Positions 1 to 37,094 of a stretch of DNA of 37,094 nucleotides are shown here, one piece after another. A model generated the notes under the pieces. That model did not search any database. It had not been told where the DNA came from and was given only the letters and a program-made list of their open reading frames with translations. How positions within the stretch are numbered: the stretch's first letter is position 1; the number at the start of each line of letters is the position of its first letter. The stretch is from Armatimonadota bacterium (GTDB lineage Bacteria > Armatimonadota > Zipacnadia > Zipacnadales > UBA11051): positions 1 to 37,094 of the forward strand of contig JABLXH010000059.1 of NCBI GenBank assembly GCA_013178155.1, read 5' to 3'. The position numbers were made by a program, and so were the translations under genes.

Positions 1-2
1 CG

Positions 3-1211
3 CTGATCATCATCCACAACCCGCCCCAGACCCACAACGTCCCGTGGAGCATCACCCACGCTGCCCGCGAAGGCCCCACGTTCACGGTGACCGTCGAGGT
101 CTGTGACATGAGTGGTGGCGTAGTCGTGACGCATAGTGAGACCCAGGTCGGGCCGGGCAGCGGGAGCTGGACCTGGGACGGCAAGATCAACGGTGTGGAC
201 GCAGCGAAGGGTCTGTACATCTCGCGGGTCTACACCTCCCACTACTTCCAGGGGGCAGGGGGCTGCAGCGACCGCGACAAGACCGATGTCCTCAGCGAGG
301 TTTCGCTAGATGCCTTCGCCTGGGTTGAGCCTGACTTCCCTGACAGAGCAGCGGTGATGCTGCAGTATACATTGGCGCAGGCGTGCTCCGACGTCACGGT
401 GACGGCATACGCACCCAATCTCGAAACTACGACTATCTACGTCCCAACAGATGGCACCCTCCCGGGCAGTGCGGGTACGCACAATGTCTTTGTGGAGTTC
501 AAGGTAAGACGGGATCAGATGGGGCCGTACAGCTTCGTCATCACCGGGATGCAAGCCGATGGCTCCGCCAACCGCGACGGGCTACCCAAGGCCCTGGTGC
601 CCCAGGGCGCGGTCCAAGCGGTAGCCGCTCCAGCGACGACGGTTGCCAGCGACGGTTTCGGAAGCTGGTTTTTCGACCTTGCCAAGGCTGCAACCCTCGC
701 GGAACAGACAGAGCACAACCTGCCTTACGCGATCGGCTCAGCGGAGGCGACAACGTGGGCGATCACCGACACGCTTAAGCATGCTGCCGTTCTTGCCTAC
801 TACGGCCACTCTGATGCGACCTCGATTGGCGACGGTTCAGGCAACAACAAGTATCTCTTCTCAAGCGACCTCGATGGCCTCAGTGTGGGGCACGTTCTCT
901 TTGCCCTGTGGGGGGGCTGTGACACTGCCAATCCCACGCAGTACACTGGTGAGAACTGGCTCGTGGCATCGCAGAGGAATGGCATAGACTGCGCCGTCGG
1001 ATGGACGACCTCCGTATCCCTTGGCGCGCTTGCGAAGTTTGCCGAATTCCTCTGGCACGACCTATCTGCAGATAGCGCTTGGGTGTCGCTGGCATGTAAC
1101 GACGCAGCCTGGACAACACACCTCTGGTTCCTATGCGTCCCCACTGGGATCCTGAATTACAACATGTACGGCGACGTGCAACTGATGCCCGCCCGTTTCG
1201 GGGAGCGATGA
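3..1211 (+). CDS. Exported caspase-fold (clan CD-like) protein with FlgD-like domain, 5' end outside window
   Basis: The frame is open to the left window edge, so the N-terminus is missing; GTG at 87 is only an internal codon. The visible part starts with beta-rich sequence and a FlgD-like Ig segment (SWTWDGKINGVDAAKGLY). A second beta domain follows, and then a C-terminal domain with the spaced pair YGHS (His codon 807-809) and WGGCD (Cys codon 918-920), 37 codons apart. Hydrophobic strands precede both residues. This His/Cys layout is that of caspase-like clan CD peptidases (CHAT, C25, metacaspase). The protein aligns by motif order with the protein at 34151-36249 (for example GCSDRDKTDVL versus GCSDQDKAETL). 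Its stop codon overlaps the next start (ATGA). Peptidase activity is inferred, not shown. Confidence 0.7.
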   Translation: MIIIHNPPQTHNVPWSITHAAREGPTFTVTVEVCDMSGGVVVTHSETQVGPGSGSWTWDGKINGVDAAKGLYISRVYTSHYFQGAGGCSDRDKTDVLSEVSLDAFAWVEPDFPDRAAVMLQYTLAQACSDVTVTAYAPNLETTTIYVPTDGTLPGSAGTHNVFVEFKVRRDQMGPYSFVITGMQADGSANRDGLPKALVPQGAVQAVAAPATTVASDGFGSWFFDLAKAATLAEQTEHNLPYAIGSAEATTWAITDTLKHAAVLAYYGHSDATSIGDGSGNNKYLFSSDLDGLSVGHVLFALWGGCDTANPTQYTGENWLVASQRNGIDCAVGWTTSVSLGALAKFAEFLWHDLSADSAWVSLACNDAAWTTHLWFLCVPTGILNYNMYGDVQLMPARFGER

Positions 1212-1744
1212 GGATGACCAAGTACCGGGCCGCGGCCATGACGATTGCCGTCGCTGCAGCACTGCTTGGCTTGTGGCTTACCTGGCAAGGCTATCTACTG
1301 GTCCTGCGGTCGCGCATCGCCAGCTTCGTTGGCGTCCCGACAGCCTATGTTCAGCCGCAACACAATGGCCTGCTCGGCATGCATACGCCGGGGCCGTACT
1401 TCAACGTCACGGCCCCAGATGGCCATCACCTTGCGACCGCCTTTGCGACGCTCTCTGGTACCGTCAGCGGGATAACGTTCGCTGTGCGACCCGGCGGGTT
1501 GATCGAGCCCCGCGAACCGGACCCCCTGCTGACCGCTGAAGGCACCGACAGACTGGCTCGGGAGCTAATCGAGCGATTCTGGGACAACGCCCCCGTATCG
1601 CTGCAGAGAGTCAATTACCAGAAGGACAAACCCGGCGGGGTAAAGGCTTCCTGGCGTACCTCGGGACCCGAAGTGAGGGTCTACACCCTCATTGGGATGC
1701 CCGGCCGCTTCGTCGCCATTGAAAGAGGTGAGCCCCAACCATGA
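1208..1744 (+). CDS. Small membrane-anchored protein of unknown function
   Basis: This 178-residue protein starts with ATG in an ATGA overlap with the upstream caspase-fold gene. An in-frame upstream codon at 1133 would run into the previous gene and is not favoured. Residues about 8-32 form one hydrophobic segment (MTIAVAAALLGLWLTW) after a basic N-terminus, so it is probably a signal anchor with the rest outside the membrane. The remainder has no motif I recognise. The stretch near LLTAEGTDRLARELIERF resembles the helix that opens PepSY/YcdB-type modules, but this is weak. It overlaps the next gene by ATGA, so the three genes are almost certainly co-translated. The right-hand locus at 34-37 kb has no counterpart at this position. 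Confidence 0.7.
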   Translation: MRMTKYRAAAMTIAVAAALLGLWLTWQGYLLVLRSRIASFVGVPTAYVQPQHNGLLGMHTPGPYFNVTAPDGHHLATAFATLSGTVSGITFAVRPGGLIEPREPDPLLTAEGTDRLARELIERFWDNAPVSLQRVNYQKDKPGGVKASWRTSGPEVRVYTLIGMPGRFVAIERGEPQP

Positions 1745-2595
1745 CCACGGGACGCCTTGCTTCACTGCGCGTCGCGGCCGTCGCGGCCAGCGTCGTCCTG
1801 GTCTGCCATGTAGTGCCCTGCAGGGCGGCAGACGAGGGAACAGGGTCGCAGGCTGCGGCGCTGGCGGCCCTCGCCAACATCATCGGGTGTCCCGAGGGGG
1901 AACTGACCCTGGAGCCACTGCCCCCGCTCCCCACGGGGCATGTCTGGGAGAAGCGGGTCGTCCGGTACCGCATCGCGACACCCGGATCGCAGGACATCAG
2001 GAAAGCGATGAATGGCCTCCTGCTCTTCGATACGAGGCACGCCACCGTATGCCGGATCGTCCTGTATGACCGGCTCGCCGGCGCCCCCAAGTACGAGGCG
2101 GACTACTCCCCACCGGAGTCCCTGCGGGTGGTTGCGCAAGCCATCGCTGAGCGTATCAGCGGCTTCGATGTCAGTGCGATGGCCGGACCGACGATAGGGA
2201 CTATCCAGTCGCGCCTCTACGAGTACACATGGCAGGAGCGAGCCGCCGGCAGCGAGGCGCTCACAGGAACATCGGTTGGTGTGGCATTGTCCCCCGCTAC
2301 CGGCGAGTGGGTTGCGCTGTCGATCTGGCGCGCCGACCCGAAGGTCACGGTGGAAACGGTGGGGCTGTCTGAAGCTGCGGCGCGCGACAAGGCCCTGGAG
2401 CGAGTGCGGCCTGCGCCGGATGTGGAGGTCGGTGAACGAGGACAACTCATGCTGTCAATGGCCCTTGTGCCCGGGGAAGGTCCGGGGTGGGTCTTTGAAC
2501 TGCGCGACCGTCGCACTGGCCGCAGTGGGCACATGGTGATTGATGCTCAGACTGGCGCCGTCGTCACGAGCACGCTCGACCTGCCTGCGCAATGA
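1741..2595 (+). CDS. Exported PepSY/YcdB-like protein
   Basis: The protein has 284 residues and starts with ATG inside the upstream stop (ATGA). Residues 1-29 look like a Sec signal peptide with a basic start, a hydrophobic core (VAAVAASVVLVCHVV) and a likely cut near CRA-AD. The mature part looks like two related modules. Each has a helix with regularly spaced Ala/Arg (ESLRVVAQAIAERI; LSEAAARDKALERV), strands, an aromatic strand such as YEYTW, and an ending like VIDAQTGAVV. This is the pattern of PepSY and YcdB/YcdC repeat domains, which in M4 peptidase propeptides act as inhibitors or folding aids. The gene at 36249 has the same architecture and the same position after a caspase-fold gene. 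A role as inhibitor or chaperone of the upstream protein is inference. Confidence 0.65.
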   Translation: MTTGRLASLRVAAVAASVVLVCHVVPCRAADEGTGSQAAALAALANIIGCPEGELTLEPLPPLPTGHVWEKRVVRYRIATPGSQDIRKAMNGLLLFDTRHATVCRIVLYDRLAGAPKYEADYSPPESLRVVAQAIAERISGFDVSAMAGPTIGTIQSRLYEYTWQERAAGSEALTGTSVGVALSPATGEWVALSIWRADPKVTVETVGLSEAAARDKALERVRPAPDVEVGERGQLMLSMALVPGEGPGWVFELRDRRTGRSGHMVIDAQTGAVVTSTLDLPAQ

Positions 2596-2614
2596 CGTGA
2601 CCACTGCTCACCCC

Positions 2615-2648
2615 CCGCGCCGGAGGCCCTCCTTGGCCTCCGGCGCGG
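2615..2648. terminator. Bidirectional hairpin terminator
   Basis: A perfect 14-bp inverted repeat (2615-2628 with 2635-2648, arm CCGCGCCGGAGGCC) encloses a 6-nt loop. It lies 19 nt after the stop of the PepSY-like gene and 36 nt after the stop of the convergent response regulator. No long T-run follows on either side, but its position between convergent genes and its GC-rich stem make termination for both strands the natural reading. Confidence 0.75.
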
Positions 2649-2684
2649 CAGGTTCAGGGAATGTGCAGGGAAGTCAGGATGGGC

Positions 2685-3092
2685 TCACGAAGAGGCGGTG
2701 ACCCGGATCAAGGCTTGTTGGATGTCCGCCAGGCGGAAAGGCTTCAGGAGCTGGGGCTGGTCGTCGCGCAGCAGGCACTGGGCCGGAAGGGTCTCCATCT
2801 CCTCGCCGGTGATGAAAATGAACCGTCGAGCCAGTTCCCCACGCAGCGATCGGCAGGCCTGGTAGAGCTGGTCTCCGTCCATGTGAGGCATGTAGAGGTC
2901 GCAGATGACCGCCTCATAGTCGTTGCTCTGCAGCTTGGGCAGGGCTTCGCGACCATCCTTGGCCAATTCGGACTGGTAGCCCAGAGCTGCGAACATGGCC
3001 TCCAGACAGCCGCGCACTGCTGCATTATCGTCAACGATCAGGACTTTGGCGCCGTTCCCACGGCGGCGCCGTGCTTCAGTGGGGTAGGGCAT
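2685..3092 (-). CDS. Stand-alone response regulator receiver (CheY/Spo0F-like)
   Basis: This is a single phosphoacceptor domain with no output domain. The hallmarks are the acidic pair in KVLIVDDNAAVRG, the phosphorylatable Asp in AVICDLYMPHMDG, the Thr in FITGEE and the Lys in LLKPF. With the chosen ATG at 3092 it has 135 residues, a short basic N-terminus and then the receiver. An alternative ATG at 3146 would add 18 residues, but it lies only about 2 nt from the transcript start predicted by the candidate promoter at 3155-3182. The gene is transcribed alone, convergent to the PepSY-like gene and divergent from efp. No histidine kinase is in the window, so it must receive phosphate from an enzyme encoded elsewhere. 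Its target process is unknown. Confidence 0.88.
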   Translation of the reverse strand: MPYPTEARRRRGNGAKVLIVDDNAAVRGCLEAMFAALGYQSELAKDGREALPKLQSNDYEAVICDLYMPHMDGDQLYQACRSLRGELARRFIFITGEEMETLPAQCLLRDDQPQLLKPFRLADIQQALIRVTASS

Positions 3093-3154
3093 CGTGGCAG
3101 TTGCCCCCTCAGGCGTGCCGCGATGATACACAACCAGGCAATACACGCAAGCTG

Positions 3155-3182
3155 ACTATACCCTCTTGCACGCCAAGTGTAA
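3155..3182 (-). promoter_or_regulatory. Candidate sigma70-type promoter for the response regulator
   Basis: Reading the minus strand, TTACAC (3182-3177) and TATAGT (3160-3155) are separated by 16 bp. The predicted transcript start near 3148 gives a leader of about 56 nt for a start at 3092. This is a match by eye only. Confidence 0.45.
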
Positions 3183-3226
3183 CATCGGCCATGTCAGCGC
3201 GAGCTTAAGGCCCCTTCAAATGTCAA

Positions 3227-3236
3227 TCAAGCTTGA
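3227..3236. repeat. 10-bp palindrome in the divergent intergenic region
   Basis: TCAAGCTTGA is a perfect palindrome inside an AT-richer stretch (about 3213-3250) between the divergent response regulator and efp promoters. Imperfect outer arms (CTTCAAATG on the left, CATTGAAAG on the right) extend the symmetry. It could be an operator, but no regulator is identified. Confidence 0.25.
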
Positions 3237-3335
3237 AATGGCATTGAAAGCACATGGGGCGGCTGCTGAGCGCACGTGTACGGCCTCTTGAGCCAGACCG
3301 AAGGCACACCCTTGCCCGGCCTGGTCACACGCGCT

Positions 3336-3364
3336 TTGACTTTTGGGGGGGCATCATGTAGAAT
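3336..3364 (+). promoter_or_regulatory. Sigma70-type promoter of the efp-led operon
   Basis: TTGACT at 3336-3341 and TAGAAT at 3359-3364 are separated by exactly 17 bp, each one or two changes from consensus. The predicted start near 3371 gives a leader of about 44 nt before the GTG start of efp. It is the best promoter-like match I saw in the window and precedes an almost 15-kb co-directional gene run. Confidence 0.7.
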
Positions 3365-3414
3365 CGCCGCCATGGCAAAAGGGGTGGGCCATTGTCGAGC
3401 CTGGGAGGACCGAC

Positions 3415-3978
3415 GTGATCTCCACTTCTGATTTCAAGAGCGGCCTGACCATTGAGTTGGATGGGAAGGTCTACCAGATTGTCAGCACAGAGTTCCACAA
3501 GCCGGGCAAGGGCCAGGCCGTGGTACGCACGCGCCTGCGGGATCTGGAGACCGGCAACGTGTTCGCCAAGACCTTTCGGTCGGGGGAGAAAGTGGAACCG
3601 GCGCGGGTTGAGCGTAAGGAGATGCAGTTCCTGTACGCCACGGGCGAGAGCTTCGTGTTCATGGATCTGGACACCTACGACCAAGTCGAGCTAACGGCTG
3701 AACAGGTGGCCGACCAGGCCAAGTGGCTCAAGGACGGCGAATCCGTGTGGTTCATCAGCCACAACAACCGCATTCTGGGCATTGATGTGGCCAACACGGT
3801 AGACCGCCGGGTCATCAAGACCGATCCGGGCGTGCGCGGTGACACGGCGCAGGGCGGGACCAAACCTGCGGTCATTGAGGGGGGCGCCACGGTGACCGTG
3901 CCTCTCTTCGTGAGCCAGGACGAGATCATCCGGGTTGACACGCGCACCGGCGAATACGTAACCAGGGTAAGTAACTAA
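3415..3978 (+). CDS. efp: Translation elongation factor P
   Basis: EF-P enters the ribosomal E site and relieves stalling at polyproline stretches. The 187-residue length fits the family and its three beta-barrel domains. The N-terminal KOW-like domain contains the loop HKPGKGQ, in which Lys32 sits at the tip that reaches the peptidyl-transferase centre and is modified in many bacteria. The C-terminal OB region (GATVTVPLFVSQDEIIRVDTRTGEY) is typical. I chose GTG at 3415 because it gives the canonical start MISTSDFKSG and has GGGAGGA five bases upstream. An upstream in-frame ATG region from 3343 overlaps the promoter and is unlikely. The modification enzyme is not encoded nearby. The gene leads the operon and is followed 41 nt later by the accB-like gene. 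Confidence 0.97.
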   Translation: MISTSDFKSGLTIELDGKVYQIVSTEFHKPGKGQAVVRTRLRDLETGNVFAKTFRSGEKVEPARVERKEMQFLYATGESFVFMDLDTYDQVELTAEQVADQAKWLKDGESVWFISHNNRILGIDVANTVDRRVIKTDPGVRGDTAQGGTKPAVIEGGATVTVPLFVSQDEIIRVDTRTGEYVTRVSN

Positions 3979-4019
3979 GCGGTTTCGGCCCCCGTCGGAA
4001 CTTCGCAGGCGGACTCAAC

Positions 4020-4475
4020 GTGGAAATAGACCGCGACCGTATCCTCGAGCTGGTGCGAATTCTAAAAGCCTCCTCCGCGGCCGAACTGACCGTCGAGGAA
4101 GGGGGCGTGACGGTGCGCCTGGTCCGGGCCCTCACGCCCACCGCGACCGAGCCGGTGGTTACGGTCGCCGCCGGCGATGACCCACCGAGTACGGTACCGC
4201 TGTCCGAAACGCCGGCGCCTGCAGGACCCACCGTTGATACGGTCACCGTGACCTCCCGGTTCGTTGGGCTCTTTTACCCCGGCAGGGGACCTGGCGGACC
4301 TCCACTGGTGGAGGTGGGCCAGGAAGTGGCCGAGGGACAGGTGCTGGGTGTGGTTGAGGTCCTCCGCAAGCCCATGGACGTCACCAGCCCGGTGGCCGGT
4401 GTCCTGGTCGAGAGGGTGGCCGAGGAAGGGGCGCCGGTGCAATACGGCGACCCGCTTTTCGCCATCAGAGTCTGA
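4020..4475 (+). CDS. accB: AccB-like biotin carboxyl carrier protein lacking the biotinyl-lysine
   Basis: In fatty-acid synthesis BCCP carries CO2 on a biotinyl-lysine between biotin carboxylase and carboxyltransferase. This 151-residue protein has the normal BCCP layout: an N-terminal helix and strand (DRDRILELVRILK... LTVEEGGVTVRLVR), a Pro/Thr-rich linker at about 37-75, and a C-terminal biotinyl domain ending in YGDPLFAIRV. The biotinylation hairpin, normally EAMKM, reads EVLRKPMDV. Alignment to the following VAG needs no gap, so Arg116 occupies the lysine site and Lys117 is shifted by one. Arg is encoded by CGC at 4365-4367. It precedes accC with a prepilin-like gene between. Either biotin attaches at Lys117, or this is an unbiotinylated, BADC-like regulatory or structural subunit. 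Family assignment is sure, function is not. Confidence 0.88.
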   Translation: MEIDRDRILELVRILKASSAAELTVEEGGVTVRLVRALTPTATEPVVTVAAGDDPPSTVPLSETPAPAGPTVDTVTVTSRFVGLFYPGRGPGGPPLVEVGQEVAEGQVLGVVEVLRKPMDVTSPVAGVLVERVAEEGAPVQYGDPLFAIRV

Positions 4476-7041: not shown

Positions 7042-8268
7042 GTGGATAGCACTCCCACACTTACCGTACATACCGTACAAGAGCTCACCACCCGCGTCCG
7101 GCTACTGCTGGAGCATGATGAGGTGCTGAAAGAGGTAGCGGTGCGCGGCGAGGTCTCAAACTTCAGCCGCCATTCGTCCGGGCACCTGTACTTCTCACTC
7201 AAGGACGATCGAGCAACGCTGAGTTGCGTCTGTTTCCGGGGTGCGGCTATTGGTCTGAAGTTCGAGCCGCAGGACGGCCAGAGCGTCATTGCGTACGGCA
7301 GCATCACCGTCTACGAGAAGCAGGGGCGGTATCAGCTCATGGTCCGCTTCATGCGCCCCGATGGCGTGGGCGACCTGGCGGCGGCGCTGGAAGCCCTCCG
7401 CAAGCGGCTAGACGAGGAAGGGTTGTTTGCCCCGGAGCGCAAACGCCCCCTGCCCCGTTTCCCGCGGGCCATTGGCCTGATTACTTCGCCCACTGGCGCC
7501 GCCGTCGAAGACATGAAGCGCATCATCGGCCAGCGGTACCCGCTGGCGCGAATCGTGGTCGTCCCGACCATCGTCCAGGGAGAAGCCGGGGCATCCAGCA
7601 TCGTCGCTTCCCTGCGGCGGGCCAACTGCCGCGACGACCTGGACGTGCTGATTGTGGGACGGGGCGGTGGCTCTCTGGAGGACCTCTGGTGCTTCAACGA
7701 GGAGAGCGTCGCCCGCGCTGTCTTCGCCAGCCGGCTGCCGGTCATCAGCGCGGTGGGCCATGAAACCGACACCACGATCTGCGACCTGGTGGCCGATGTC
7801 CGGGCCGCAACGCCCTCCAATGCCGCTGAACTGGTGGTTCCCGACCAGCAGGAACTGCGGCGCCATCTGCAGGCTCTCGGGCGTCACCTCGCGGCTGGTC
7901 TTGAGAAGCAGTTGACACGCTGGCGGCGAAGACTGGAGCAGGCAGCCCGGCATCCGCTGTTGCAGCGACCGGAGATGCTCCTGCACTCCTGGGTGCTGCG
8001 TCTGGACACTGCCGCCACCGGCCTGCTCGATGGCATCGAGAAGATCGTCGGCGCCCTGCGCGCGCAGTTGGATAAGGCCAGCGTGCGACTCGACGCACTC
8101 AGCCCGGTGGCCGTACTCGGACGCGGCTATGCCATCGTCCGCAGGCGCGAGGATGGGGCAATTGTGCGCCAGGTCGGACAGGTTTCACCCGGAATGGGTC
8201 TGACCATCACCGTCGCTGACGGTGACTTCGGGGCCCTGGTCCAGGGTCCTGACACCGCCGCCGTCTGA
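7042..8268 (+). CDS. xseA: Exodeoxyribonuclease VII large subunit
   Basis: XseA is the catalytic subunit of exonuclease VII, which degrades single-stranded DNA from both ends to oligonucleotides. The 408-residue protein has the N-terminal OB fold (VRGEVSNFSRHSSGHLYFSL) and the nuclease core with GLITSPTGAAVEDM, IVGRGGGSLEDLWCFN, SAVGHETDTTICDLVAD and RAATPSNAAELVVPD. A helical region that forms the contact with XseB follows, and it ends with the typical LGRGYAIV segment. GTG at 7042 has AGGAAAG upstream and gives the usual N-terminal length. The small subunit follows after 33 nt, so the enzyme is encoded as a unit. It is slightly shorter than the E. coli protein, which is common outside proteobacteria. 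Confidence 0.97.
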   Translation: MDSTPTLTVHTVQELTTRVRLLLEHDEVLKEVAVRGEVSNFSRHSSGHLYFSLKDDRATLSCVCFRGAAIGLKFEPQDGQSVIAYGSITVYEKQGRYQLMVRFMRPDGVGDLAAALEALRKRLDEEGLFAPERKRPLPRFPRAIGLITSPTGAAVEDMKRIIGQRYPLARIVVVPTIVQGEAGASSIVASLRRANCRDDLDVLIVGRGGGSLEDLWCFNEESVARAVFASRLPVISAVGHETDTTICDLVADVRAATPSNAAELVVPDQQELRRHLQALGRHLAAGLEKQLTRWRRRLEQAARHPLLQRPEMLLHSWVLRLDTAATGLLDGIEKIVGALRAQLDKASVRLDALSPVAVLGRGYAIVRRREDGAIVRQVGQVSPGMGLTITVADGDFGALVQGPDTAAV

Positions 8269-8301
8269 TTACCGCGCCGACAGCTTCGGGGAGTGTGACC
8301 T

Positions 8302-8547
8302 GTGGAAGACACCCAGAATCTGAGCTTTGAGGCCGCGCTTCAGCGTCTCGAGGAAATCGTCGCCAAGCTCGACGGTGGTGAACTCTCACTGGAGGAGGCT
8401 ATCGCCTGCTTCCAGGAGGGCAACCGATTGCGCGAGTACTGCGAACAGAAGCTCAAGGAGGCGACGTCTCAGGTAGAGGAGCTTCTGCCCGAGGCCGGTC
8501 CCGAGACTGCCGAGGAGATCAGTGGCGGCCTCTTCGGGGATGACTGA
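8302..8547 (+). CDS. xseB: Exodeoxyribonuclease VII small subunit
   Basis: This 81-residue protein has the full XseB signature: LSFEAALQRLEEIVAKLDGGELSLEEAIACFQEG followed by a helix (LREYCEQKLKEATSQVEELL) and an acidic tail. Several XseB copies form a coiled-coil stalk on each XseA and are needed for activity. GTG at 8302 gives the standard start. The gene follows xseA by 33 nt and its 3' end comes close to, or overlaps, the dxs start depending on the dxs start codon used. Confidence 0.95.
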   Translation: MEDTQNLSFEAALQRLEEIVAKLDGGELSLEEAIACFQEGNRLREYCEQKLKEATSQVEELLPEAGPETAEEISGGLFGDD

Positions 8548-33979: not shown

Positions 33980-34008
33980 AGTCTGCGCCATGTCCGGGCG
34001 GCTGTCAA
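33980..34008 (-). promoter_or_regulatory. Candidate promoter giving a leaderless sulfatase transcript
   Basis: On the minus strand TTGACA (34008-34003) is followed after 17 bp by CAGACT (33985-33980), a weak -10. The predicted transcript start falls at or within a base or two of the sulfatase ATG (33972), and no ribosome-binding site precedes that ATG. The two facts agree with leaderless translation. The -10 match is poor. Confidence 0.35.
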
Positions 34009-34150
34009 GACCAGCAGGAATCCCGGGAACTCATATCGAAGGGAAGTGTTACTGGCATGCAGGAGGTGGTGCAGGAGCCAGCACGTTCCCCGTCGTCCGT
34101 TTCGCCCCGTAGTGCCAGGTCGCGACATTTCAGTGCTTGGGGAGGATGAA

Positions 34151-36249
34151 ATGGTACCGCGTCGCACGCACCTGGTCGTTTGGCTGCTTCAACTTGTCGT
34201 AGTAGCTTCCTGTTGGGGGGTGTAGGGTGGGCTGAGCTGGCCCTCCAGATCACCACCCCCGACATGGACCCGGCCACGCTCTCGCTCGGCGAGACCTGCG
34301 ACTTCACCGCCGTCGCCACGCTCGACGGCAAGCCCCTCGACGCGACCGACCTCACCTGGGAATGGGACTTCGGCGACAAGTCCGAGCTGTGCAAGGACAA
34401 CCCCGCGCCCCACGCCTACACCGACCCCGGCGAGTACCTCGTCACCGTTGCCGCCTTCTACGAGAAGCAATCCACCTCGGCCAAGGTGACGGTGATTGTC
34501 GAGGGCGTCATGCTGAACTACCCGACCGACGGGCCAGGGATCATCATCTTCACCCCCGACGTGGGCGGCGAGATCTGTGACACCGGCGCTGTCCTATGCG
34601 CCGTCCCGCGGGCTTGGCTCAATGCCAACCCCTCCAAGAGCTTCGCCGGCGCGCGGTTCTACCGGTACGTCAACGGTCAATGGGAGCGGGAGGACGAGGC
34701 GGGTGACGGCTGGGTCACACCGGACCCGTATGACTTCCTCTGGGAGGGCGCCTACTACAAGGTCTGCCGTCTCGGTTCGTGGTTCACTCCGTCGTTGCCT
34801 AACGTGTCGACCACGTGGAAGGCCGACTACTGGATCGGCACCCCATCTGCGCCTCCGCCAGGCCGCGTCGTCTACACTCCCTACACCACACCGCAGCGCA
34901 GCGTCACGCCCAACAACGGCGTGGTCACCTCCACCAGCAATCCGCTCATCTTCCACACTGACAACCCGCAGTCGCACCCAATCGAGTGGAACGTCGCGCA
35001 CCTGGACTACCCCACCACGCCGCAGCACATCCAGTTCGCGGTGACGGTGACCGTTCACAATCTCAGCGGCGACACGGTCTGGACCGGGTACGCCTCGCGG
35101 GAAGGCCCGGGCGGTGGCACCACGATATGGCCCGGCACCGTCACCGGCGGGGGCTCGGCGGCCAAGGGCATCTACACCTTCAAGGTCACCGCGACCCACT
35201 CCGAGAACCAGGGGTGCAGCGACCAGGACAAGGCGGAGACTCTCGCGATCTCAGACGTCGACACTACGAGCCTCACGTTCAACGAACGTGACTTGGTGTT
35301 AGAGGGCAGCGTCGAGTATACGCTGAGTGAGGACGCCGACGAGGTCACAATCCAGGCCTACAGGCCTGACCTGCAGACAGCCGGTAGTGAGATCACCGGA
35401 ACCTGCGACGCCGGCGAGAACAGCGTCGAAGTGAGCATCCCAGTCACGGCCAGTTGCCTCGGCACGTATTGCCTTGTTGTGCAGGCCAAAGAGACCGAGG
35501 AGGCCGCCGAGACAAACAATAACCGCGACCAGCAGCAGCGTTGGGCCGTGCCCAAAGGGTGCGGCATGTCGGCCATCGCGCGGACCTACGGGTTCCAGGG
35601 CGTCGGGTCCAGCCTCAACTATGTAAAGGACATGCTCGAGGAGGCCGGCGAACAGCAGGAGCATGCGCCTGACGGAACCCACTACCCACCGCCGGCGTAC
35701 AACGCGGACCTGTACCTGATCAATGACGCTCAGGCGCTGTATACGTATCCTCGTCTGGCGGGTCAGGACCCGGACACCGGTGACAACTGGACGCACCGCG
35801 ACGCGTTGATCATGTTTGCGGGGCACGGCAGCCCGGGGCAACTGCATATCCAGAACACGTGGGCTGACTGGCACAAGCTACGCGCTTGGGAGGGCACCGA
35901 CGGCACCCAGGACTGTTACTACTTGCCCAATCTCCCGAGCGGCTGCCTGTCGCGCTGTCTATGCGTCCTGCTTGTCGGCTGTGAGACGGGCTTGGACGCA
36001 CCGGACGGCAGCAACCTGCTGGACGTGTTCACCGCCAAGGGGGCAGGCTGCGCCATCGGCAGCACGCGGGATATCTATACTGCCGAGACGCAGGACTTCT
36101 CCGATGAGTTCTGGCGCAGCGCGATGGAGGACGGTGCGACGATCGGCGCGGCCATCGCCAGCGCGCGTGTCGCAGCCGACATGGAGCCGTCAGACTGGGC
36201 AACCGCTGGCGACACTAGCCAGAGCATCCGGCCGGGGAGGTACCAGTGA
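34151..36249 (+). CDS. Exported PKD/FlgD-like/caspase-fold protein, frame break in a G-run after the signal peptide
   Basis: ATG at 34151 has GGAGG five bases upstream and opens MVPRRTHLVVWLLQLVVVAS, a signal peptide with a lipobox-like VASC. That frame stops at 34223. The main frame (codons from 34180, about 680 residues) continues after the G6 run at 34215-34220; one extra G would join them. Domains are PKD (about residues 30-110, WEWDFGDKSE...YLVTVAAFYE), beta domains, a FlgD-like segment near 35100-35200 (GTVTGGGSAAKGIYTFKV), and a caspase-like domain with FAGHGSPGQL (His codon 35824-35826) and LLVGCETGLDA (Cys codon 35980-35982), 52 codons apart. The stop overlaps the next ATG. A TTG at 34180 would give no good signal peptide. 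Function is unknown; a peptidase is inferred. Confidence 0.68.
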
Positions 36250-37094
36250 TGAGTGTGCAGACCCGCCGTACCGCAACCCACCGCAGCGCAGGCGCCGTTG
36301 TGGCGTTGCTGCTGTCGCTCTCTGCCGCAGCCTTGCCGTGTCACGCCCAAGGCCCCGACCTCGAGCGCGCCAAGAGCGTCGCCGCCGAGTTCCTCGGCAC
36401 CACTGTCGGCGAGACGGTGTGGCTCAGTGTGCGCCCTAGAGACGGAGTCCCGAACTGGTACAACGCACTGGTCGTGCACGTGCCTGACCCGCCAACCTCG
36501 GCAACTGCAGGGGGCGGGGGGATCAGGCTCTACATTGACCCTAGGGGTTACTACGTCTGCCGCACCCAATGGAGCCAGCGTTTCCCCACGGAGGGGCTGA
36601 CTGAGGCGGAGGCGTTATCCCTCGGTGAGACCCGCGCCATTGCCGAGGCCTTCGTGGCCGGCCATTTCCCTGGGTGGTCCGAACGCATGCGGCTCAAGAG
36701 CGAGTGGGCCGGCTCCACCTCGCGCAAGCCGGTCATCTTTGCGCACGAGTTCTGGTGGGAGGAGTGGCTCGATGGTGTACGCACGGGCTCGTACGTGCGC
36801 TGTGGGGTCAGTCCCCGGCCGCCCGGCACGATCTACAGCTATGCCGCCTACATTGCCCCCAAGTGGTCGCCCGACGTGGTCAAGGTGACAAGGGAGGAAG
36901 CTGAGCAGACCGCCCTCAAGCTCCTGGAGGAGCGCGGCGCTGAGAAGCCGTGGGTCCTGAAGGCCGACCTGTTCCTGAGCAAGCCGTTCATGGAGCAGCC
37001 ACACTGGTTCGTAGGCTTGGACTACGCTAACCGCGACGGGGGGTTTCTCGAGCAACTGCTCATCGATGCCGTGACTGGCGAGGAGCTGAAGCCC
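36249..37094 (+). CDS. Exported PepSY/YcdB-like protein, 3' end outside window
   Basis: ATG at 36249 overlaps the preceding stop (TGATG). The frame is open for 282 codons to the right window edge. Residues 1-36 are a signal peptide (RSAGAVVALLLSLSAAALP, cut near CHA-QG). Two modules follow, each with a helix (GPDLERAKSVAAEFLG; VTREEAEQTALKLLEERG), strands, and a VxxDxxxG-like turn (IRLYIDPRGYY; LLIDAVTGEEL). An aromatic strand HEFWWEEW matches YEYTW of the gene at 1741-2595. This is the PepSY/YcdB repeat pattern. Position directly after a caspase-fold gene is the same as in the left locus. The mature domain is probably extracytoplasmic. Confidence 0.68.
   Translation, partial: MSVQTRRTATHRSAGAVVALLLSLSAAALPCHAQGPDLERAKSVAAEFLGTTVGETVWLSVRPRDGVPNWYNALVVHVPDPPTSATAGGGGIRLYIDPRGYYVCRTQWSQRFPTEGLTEAEALSLGETRAIAEAFVAGHFPGWSERMRLKSEWAGSTSRKPVIFAHEFWWEEWLDGVRTGSYVRCGVSPRPPGTIYSYAAYIAPKWSPDVVKVTREEAEQTALKLLEERGAEKPWVLKADLFLSKPFMEQPHWFVGLDYANRDGGFLEQLLIDAVTGEELKP

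What the first reader, a model, noticed from the sequence alone, without database searches (positions are those of the whole stretch)
34151..37094. Caspase-fold secreted protein overlapped by a PepSY-like protein gene
Two loci in the window, 1-2595 and 34151-37094, pair a secreted protein carrying a His/Cys clan CD-like domain with a PepSY/YcdB-like exported protein, using overlapping start and stop codons. The two caspase-fold proteins share FlgD-like segments and motif order but differ clearly in sequence, so the pairing has been kept through divergence. PepSY domains in M4 propeptides inhibit peptidases, so the pair could be an extracytoplasmic peptidase and its inhibitor or chaperone. I know of no described system with this pairing.
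Basis: partly seen in the sequence, partly recalled or inferred. Interest (0 to 1): 0.75.

Follow-up and report, generated by a model that had tools for sequence, protein, structure and literature searches.

The report
Shuffled exported peptidases with matched partners
An uncultured bacterium of the phylum Armatimonadota carries a family of exported proteins whose tail is an interchangeable protein-cutting enzyme, each followed by its own matching exported partner that probably restrains it; the set looks like a toxin-and-antidote arsenal, and I found no earlier description of it in this phylum or with this kind of antidote.

Summary
The pairing is real. The window is a whole contig of a metagenome-type genome (Armatimonadota, same order as Candidatus Zipacnadum) that breaks at both ends inside a repeated gene family. 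The ends encode Sec-type PKD/FlgD-Ig proteins with a clan CD (caspase-fold) C-terminal module; across 19 divergent modules only the His, the Cys and two Gly are invariant. The downstream exported protein has a YpeB/PepSY-like fold. Two corrections: the 34151 start is out of frame with the enzyme (run of six G at 34215-34220), and at the left end a third small gene lies between the pair.

The pair is one case of a larger layout. Relatives keep an N-terminal leader and a FlgD-Ig 'handle' but change the C-terminal module: clan CD, C39-like, DUF7689, HExxH metallopeptidases and unidentified ones. Each module type has its own exported or lipoprotein partner type; no partner type crosses module types among 35 loci. 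Arrays contain modules without signal peptides, handles are homogenised within genomes, and leaders are enriched in long G/C runs of differing length. I read this as a polymorphic effector/cognate-inhibitor (toxin/immunity-like) system with likely phase-variable expression. Inhibition, toxicity and delivery are inferred, not shown.

The parts
34000..34150 (+). Upstream leader DNA repeated at four other places in the genome (contigs C68, C50, C86, C13)
   Evidence: 93% identical to C68 and C50 over about 311 bp, 86-89% to C86 and C13 over shorter stretches; alignment A1
34151..34225 (+). Start codon and signal-peptide reading frame (MVPRRTHLVVWLLQLVVVASCWGV*), out of frame with the enzyme ORF
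   Evidence: Three-frame translation; the C68 copy reads on as ...CWGGVGWAELALQ
34215..34220 (+). Run of six G at the end of the signal peptide; G9 in C68 (in frame) and G8 in C50 (out of frame): candidate phase-variation tract
   Evidence: runs of 8 or more in 6/16 leaders against 1.03% of 1946 background windows
34180..36249 (+). Enzyme ORF: PKD (34270-34500), Ig-like region, FlgD-Ig (35038-35199) and following Ig-like domain, C-terminal clan CD module
   Evidence: Pfam PKD 4.1e-11, FlgD_ig 1.2e-05, Peptidase_C25 2.4e-05
35542..36246 (+). Clan CD (C25/CHAT-like) module; His codon 35824-35826 (GHG), Cys codon 35980-35982 (GCET)
   Evidence: C25 27.3 bits against cutoff 23; only H95, C147, G167 and G173 invariant in 19 modules; PDB profile hit 8tl0 CHAT E 2.6e-05 with His and Cys aligned; fold match
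36249..37094 (+). Partner: exported YpeB/PepSY-like protein, start overlaps enzyme stop (TGATG); last about 8 residues lie beyond the contig end
   Evidence: Model pLDDT 74, three alpha-beta repeats; Foldseek 5boi YpeB E 4.7e-05; VIA Z 9.7 to 5boi, 7.3-7.5 to propeptide entries 3nqz and 4k90
1..1211 (+). Second enzyme, 5' truncated by contig end: FlgD-Ig handle (about 1-590) and clan CD module (591-1208) with GHS and GGC dyad
   Evidence: FlgD_ig 26.9 bits; DNA 98% identical to C24 over 1-305, then about 60% and lower; invariant H and C
1208..1744 (+). Small exported or membrane-anchored protein between enzyme and partner (178 aa; ATGA overlaps at both ends)
   Evidence: Weak PepSY-model score (10.6 bits); genes of similar size in the same position at L054 and L064
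1741..2595 (+). PepSY-like exported partner of the left locus
   Evidence: Pfam PepSY E 0.0015, 19.3 bits, below cutoff 24; member of the partner family model

Best explanation
These genes are members of a polymorphic exported-effector system. A constant front part (Sec signal peptide, PKD and Ig domains, FlgD-Ig 'handle') carries an interchangeable C-terminal module; in the window it is a clan CD cysteine peptidase. The gene right after the module encodes its own exported partner; for clan CD modules this is a YpeB/PepSY-fold protein that most likely binds its cognate peptidase and keeps it inactive until it is away from the producer (inhibitor or immunity protein, possibly also a folding aid). 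Other module types in the family have other partner types. Module plus partner move as one cassette by recombination in the nearly identical handle DNA, and orphan modules without signal peptide act as donors. Expression of the leader-bearing gene is probably switched by slippage in a G or C run at the signal peptide or promoter; the window copy reads as OFF. Shown here: architecture, folds, His/Cys invariance, module-partner concordance, orphan modules, handle homogenisation, enriched homopolymer runs. Inferred: peptidase activity, inhibition by the partner, toxicity to rivals, phase switching.
For: Clan CD fold and dyad. PepSY/YpeB fold, the same as inhibitory M4 propeptides and as YpeB, which is needed for stable incorporation of the lytic enzyme SleB into spores (PMC6660665: there the YpeB N-terminal domain, not the PepSY part, was the best in vitro inhibitor of SleB). 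PepSY-like partner beside all 21 clan CD modules (one of them a fragment cut by a contig end, 15 bits) and beside none of 14 other modules. Partner clusters match module clusters with no crossing: clan CD x21, DUF7689 x3, HEIGH metallopeptidase x2, type Y x2 (chance 2.8e-6 for the non-clan-CD set if loci were independent). Independent test: a search with the DUF7689 partner alone found two further DUF7689 module/partner pairs, one in a distant low-GC family. Orphan modules and strings of partners. Handle DNA about 90-97% identical over 200-300 bp between modules of different type within G013, then about 40%; clan CD module 70% and partner 66% identical between G013 and G028 while their handles are only 45%. 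G/C runs of 8 or more in 6/16 leaders against 1% background; C10 and C8 both out of frame in G029, with an interrupted in-frame equivalent in G010.
Against: No activity, toxicity or inhibition was measured. No delivery machine was identified. PepSY-like proteins also occur without a clan CD neighbour (G010:C27, G019:C386 and others), so the fold is not exclusive to the role. The clan CD model has low confidence (pLDDT 54). Only one of 19 modules reaches Pfam C25 by itself. Three of five new DUF7689-partner hits had no module upstream. The genomes are MAGs, so length variation of the G/C runs was seen only between paralogues, not within a population. P values treat related loci as independent.
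Confidence: 0.6

Rival explanations
1. Diversified digestive peptidases. The cells secrete a range of peptidases to feed on sediment protein; partners are detached propeptide-like inhibitors that only prevent self-digestion before export. Diversity reflects substrates, not conflict.
For: All identifiable modules are peptidase-like. PepSY is the fold of self-inhibitory M4 propeptides. Zipacnadia MAGs carry extracellular peptidases (PMC10290634).
Against: Does not predict orphan signal-less modules, handle homogenisation, type-matched partners of unrelated folds, orphan partner genes or contingency-type homopolymer runs.
Confidence: 0.2
2. The partner is a dedicated chaperone or export adaptor that folds or carries the peptidase; it does not inhibit it.
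For: Weaker fold matches to the Rhs/T6SS effector chaperones SciW and EagT6; co-translation through overlapping start and stop; matched divergence.
Against: Partners of other module types have unrelated sequences (HEAT repeats, lamin tail domain, BNR-like) and many are lipoproteins, which fits module-specific binding or immunity better than a common export role.
Confidence: 0.12
3. Self-processing surface proteins: the clan CD module cuts its own stalk or neighbours to release or anchor them, with varying tails for antigenic variation.
For: Caspase-like domains act as processing peptidases in other large exported proteins (PMC3482391); PKD/Ig stalk.
Against: The module is the last domain, with nothing behind it to release, and it is replaced as a whole by other peptidase types with other partners.
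Confidence: 0.05
4. Decaying repeat family: frame breaks and truncated modules mean that most copies are pseudogenes and the pairing is a relic of duplication.
For: Frame breaks in window, C50, L063, L067 and L072; deletion relic in C86.
Against: dN/dS of about 0.24 (module) and 0.32 (partner) between G013 and G028; His and Cys invariant in 19 modules; in several genomes the break sits at a G/C run in the leader.
Confidence: 0.03

Closest known systems
Polymorphic toxin systems (Zhang, Iyer and Aravind 2012, PMC3482391), Sec-dependent branch with Tox-Caspase; also CDI and Rhs loci
   Same: Constant N-terminal export and presentation part, variable C-terminal module, toxin-then-immunity gene order, standalone cassettes, strings of partner genes, caspase-like C-terminal modules and HEAT-repeat immunity proteins known
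   Different: Every module type identified here is peptidase-like; partners are exported or lipoproteins; constant part is PKD plus FlgD-Ig; PepSY and Armatimonadota do not occur in the main text held; G/C-run switching of the leader; no toxicity shown
Gingipains (peptidase family C25) with inhibitory N-terminal prodomain, e.g. RgpB 4ief
   Same: Clan CD fold, His/Cys dyad, Ig-like neighbour domain, need for an inhibitor before release
   Different: Inhibitor is a separate downstream protein of PepSY fold; FlgD-Ig precedes the catalytic module; no C-terminal type IX sorting domain seen
YpeB/SleB of Bacillus spores
   Same: Three-repeat PepSY-fold exported protein paired with an exported hydrolase that depends on it
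   Different: SleB is a lytic transglycosylase, not a peptidase; one fixed pair, no module exchange; the inhibiting part of YpeB in vitro is its N-terminal domain (PMC6660665)
M4/fungalysin PepSY-FTP propeptides (vibriolysin 3nqz, fungalysin 4k90)
   Same: Fold of the partner; propeptide inhibits and helps fold its peptidase
   Different: Acts in cis on a metallopeptidase; here the partner is in trans beside a cysteine peptidase

Membership tests
Clan CD cysteine peptidase (C25/CHAT-like) | His/Cys catalytic dyad after beta strands | tested here: met
   H95 and C147 invariant in 19 divergent modules; aligned with the corresponding His-Gly and Ala-Cys positions of SAVED-CHAT 8tl0
Clan CD cysteine peptidase (C25/CHAT-like) | Caspase-like alpha/beta fold | tested here: met
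   Foldseek best hits CHAT, gingipain and separase; VIA Z 9.2-8.0 to the same groups. Model pLDDT only 54
Peptidase family C25 (PF01364) | Pfam gathering score | tested here: inconclusive
   Window 34180 protein passes (24.2 whole, 27.3 module, cutoff 23); the other 18 modules do not. Filed as C25/CHAT-like, not as C25
PepSY (PF03413) | Pfam gathering score | tested here: not met
   Best 19.3 bits against 24; 5 of 16 partners at E < 0.1, best 0.0015. Not filed as a PF03413 member
PepSY/YpeB fold | Tandem helix plus antiparallel sheet repeats as in YpeB | tested here: met
   Three such repeats; YpeB 5boi E 4.7e-05, Z 9.7, rmsd 7.8 over 202 residues
Polymorphic toxin system | Constant N-terminal part with variable C-terminal module | tested here: met
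Polymorphic toxin system | Module-specific gene directly downstream | tested here: met
   Partner clusters match module clusters in 35 loci; extra DUF7689 pairs in L182 and L184
Polymorphic toxin system | Standalone cassettes and strings of immunity-type genes | tested here: met
   Modules without signal peptide 90-130 bp after a previous partner (L064, L066); C50 with four PepSY-like ORFs and an orphan clan CD ORF; orphan partners L159 and L180
Polymorphic toxin system | C-terminal module is toxic and the partner protects | not testable with these tools
   Needs expression and competition assays
Polymorphic toxin system | Identified delivery route | tested here: inconclusive
   Sec-type signal peptide seen; no dedicated secretion machine sought beyond SprA
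Type IX secretion cargo (gingipain-like) | C-terminal sorting domain and SprA translocon | tested here: inconclusive
   FlgD/CHU_C-like domain is internal, not C-terminal. SprA_N search negative, but its control genomes gave no signal either
Phase-variable contingency locus | Long mononucleotide run at start region or promoter, enriched over background | tested here: met
   6/16 leaders with G/C run of 8 or more, background 1.03%
Phase-variable contingency locus | Run length varies within one population and switches expression | not testable with these tools
   Only paralogue differences seen (G6/G8/G9; C8/C10)

The most novel reading that the evidence does not exclude
A phase-variable, cassette-switching arsenal made of peptidase modules, found across Armatimonadota, in which clan CD peptidases are held by free-standing PepSY/YpeB-fold immunity proteins, a family of immunity proteins not recognised before, used for conflict between related cells in sediments.
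Probability: 0.4. Interest if true: 0.85.

Novelty: new variant of a known kind. Interest (0 to 1): 0.72.

Why it matters
If the reading is right, uncultured Armatimonadota, including common deep-sediment Zipacnadia, have a toxin/immunity-like conflict system built from exported peptidases, and PepSY/YpeB-fold proteins can act as separate immunity or inhibitor proteins for cysteine peptidases. It would give a general role to many exported PepSY-like proteins of unknown function, provide natural specific inhibitors for caspase-fold peptidases, and offer a testable case of recombination handles plus homopolymer switching in a phylum with almost no genetics.

Tried and rejected
Type IX secretion was considered because FlgD-Ig resembles CHU_C and PorU: set aside because the domain is internal; the SprA search was uninformative. 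Known anti-phage defence: no PADLOC match. A PepSY label from sequence alone was rejected (below cutoffs; no PepSY-type hit by profile among PDB sequences); it rests on fold. An assembly-error reading of the 34151 frame break cannot be excluded for this copy, but long G/C runs recur at leaders in several genomes, and G029, with C10 and C8, comes from an Illumina HiSeq 4000 study (PMC10290634). Exclusive clan CD/PepSY linkage was rejected as too strong: PepSY-like genes also occur alone or in other contexts. The Mantel result was checked without near orthologues: it drops from r 0.67 to 0.27.

Full report
1. Setting. The window is the whole of contig C167 (37094 bp) of a 5.53 Mb genome in 211 contigs, 95.6% complete. 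Both contig ends fall inside a repeated gene family, which is probably why the assembly stops there. Other copies or fragments lie on C50, C24, C68, C86, C30 and C13.

2. The observation. ORF 34180-36249 has PKD, FlgD-Ig and a Peptidase_C25 match just above its cutoff. Its C-terminal 235 residues hold GHG and GCET; across 19 divergent modules (mean column identity 24%) only this His, this Cys and two Gly are invariant. A profile of these modules finds the SAVED-CHAT peptidase 8tl0 among PDB sequences with His and Cys aligned (E 2.6e-5). A low-confidence AlphaFold2 model (pLDDT 54, seven sequences) still matches CHAT, gingipains and separases by two programs. The partner 36249-37094 gives a better model (pLDDT 74) with three alpha-beta repeats; best matches are YpeB (5boi), an uncharacterised protein (5coz) and, further down, the propeptide entries of vibriolysin and fungalysin.

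3. The ATG at 34151 reads a signal peptide that runs into TAG at 34223. The enzyme frame would be joined by one extra base in the G run 34215-34220. The C68 copy has nine G and reads through; the C50 copy has eight and does not. At the left end a 178-aa exported protein lies between enzyme and PepSY-like gene, with ATGA overlaps on both sides. The right partner is cut at the contig end; C30 starts with 204 bp that differ at one base and supplies the last residues.

4. Mosaic structure. Window and C50 copies are about 85-95% identical in DNA through leader, signal peptide and PKD, then fall to 60% and 45%. Window left end and C24 are 98% identical over 300 bp of the FlgD-Ig segment, then about 60% and then 40%. 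In G013, modules of different types share about 90-97% DNA over 200-300 bp of the FlgD-Ig handle and about 40% beyond. Conversely, an orthologous clan CD cassette in G013 and G028 is 70% (module) and 66% (partner) identical while the two handles are 45%. Handle similarity also crosses module types: the handle of the clan CD gene L058 is closest to that of the metallopeptidase gene L061. This is the signature of cassette exchange on a homogenised handle (inference).

5. Variable modules, matched partners. Among relatives with the same front part, the C-terminal module can be clan CD, Peptidase_C39_2, DUF7689, HEIGH or HELEH metallopeptidase, or of unknown type (the two HExxH calls are from sequence motifs). 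Each is followed by an exported protein, often with a lipobox. In 35 loci, blastp clusters of modules and of nearest partners coincide: clan CD with the PepSY-like family, three DUF7689 modules (two families of bacteria) with one partner family, two HEIGH metallopeptidases with another, two type Y modules with another; no partner cluster spans two module clusters. The PepSY model scores every clan CD partner, one of them a contig-end fragment, and none of the 14 others. The chance of the non-clan-CD concordance is 2.8e-6 if loci were independent, which they are not fully. As a separate test I searched 151 genomes with the DUF7689 partner alone: two new hits lie directly behind DUF7689 modules, one of them in a distant low-GC family (L184), and three are orphan partners. 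Further metallopeptidase genes found by module search had recognisably similar downstream genes by eye in G045 (L185, L186) and in G020 and G011 (L187, L188).

6. Spread. Clan CD modules with an adjacent PepSY-like gene are found in about 19 genomes of 12 families in the phylum, some with tandem pairs. Divergence of module and partner is correlated (Mantel r 0.67, p 1e-4; r 0.27, p 0.002 without two near-orthologue pairs). dN/dS between G013 and G028 is about 0.24 for the module and 0.32 for the partner.

7. Orphans. In G013 modules begin 90-130 bp after the previous partner's stop, at the handle, with no signal peptide (L064 2787, L066 2360). C50 has one full gene, four PepSY-like ORFs and an orphan clan CD ORF. 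C86 keeps the leader fused to a partner remnant. L159 has PepSY-like genes with no peptidase. These are the features listed for polymorphic toxin loci in PMC3482391.

8. Homopolymer runs. G/C runs of eight or more lie in the leader region of 6 of 16 leader-bearing genes against 1.03% of 1946 background windows. In G029 the in-frame length is nine C; its two genes have ten and eight, both out of frame, while the same-genus G010 has an interrupted in-frame version. In G017 nine C lie downstream of a TTGACA, a possible promoter spacer. G029 comes from a study that used Illumina HiSeq 4000. Phase variation is the natural reading but needs read-level data. Paralogues share ancestry, so the six are fewer than six independent events; they come from four genomes.

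9. Mechanism. Most likely the peptidase is exported on a PKD/Ig stalk, and its PepSY-fold partner, probably made from the same mRNA and exported too, occupies or distorts the active site as propeptides do, protecting producer and kin. Foreign cells without that partner would be exposed. Steps shown: anatomy, folds, pairing, exchange pattern. Steps inferred: activity, inhibition, conflict role, switching. A purely digestive role remains the main rival.

10. Verdict. The pairing is real and widespread; it is one module of a polymorphic exported-peptidase system. This is a new variant of the polymorphic effector/immunity kind, with PepSY/YpeB-fold partners, not reported as immunity proteins in the literature I could search.

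Noticed in passing
L071 (G017:C451) within 140 bp upstream of 6033: Nine C just after TTGACA and before TATAGTGTTACGAT, a possible promoter-spacer run of the kind known from transcriptional phase variation.
   Followed up: partly
L015 (G000:C86) 3498-4262, minus strand: Leader and start of the signal peptide fused by deletion to the C-terminal part of a PepSY-like partner: relic of a lost enzyme.
   Followed up: yes
L146 (G010:C27) 7515-8432 and L144 (G019:C386) 7267-8226: PepSY-like lipoprotein gene in a conserved, unrelated context between a GFO/IDH-type oxidoreductase gene and an M42-like peptidase gene; no clan CD neighbour.
   Followed up: partly
L141-L143 (G022, several contigs): Nine PepSY-like matches in one genome with no clan CD module detected by my models; possible partner-only arrays.
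   Followed up: partly
window 1208-1744; L054 7604-8125; L064 1199-1714; L159 5370-5885: Recurring 171-178 aa exported protein between clan CD module and PepSY-like gene, or beside an orphan PepSY-like gene; possible second partner of one sub-clade.
   Followed up: partly
L154 (G084:C41) 2-1081 and 2847-3749: Low-GC genome in which the same FlgD/Ig segment occurs at both ends of the contig, suggesting tandem module duplication.
   Followed up: no
L187 (G020:C468) and L188 (G011:C145): HETGH/HEVGH metallopeptidase genes both followed by similar long proteins sharing 'SGYRDSGDPEHGT' (WD40/PD40-like by eye).
   Followed up: partly
L149 (G027:C184) 191-3776: HEIGH-type metallopeptidase module followed by a 427-aa repeat protein and then a PepSY-like gene: the one mixed arrangement seen.
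   Followed up: no
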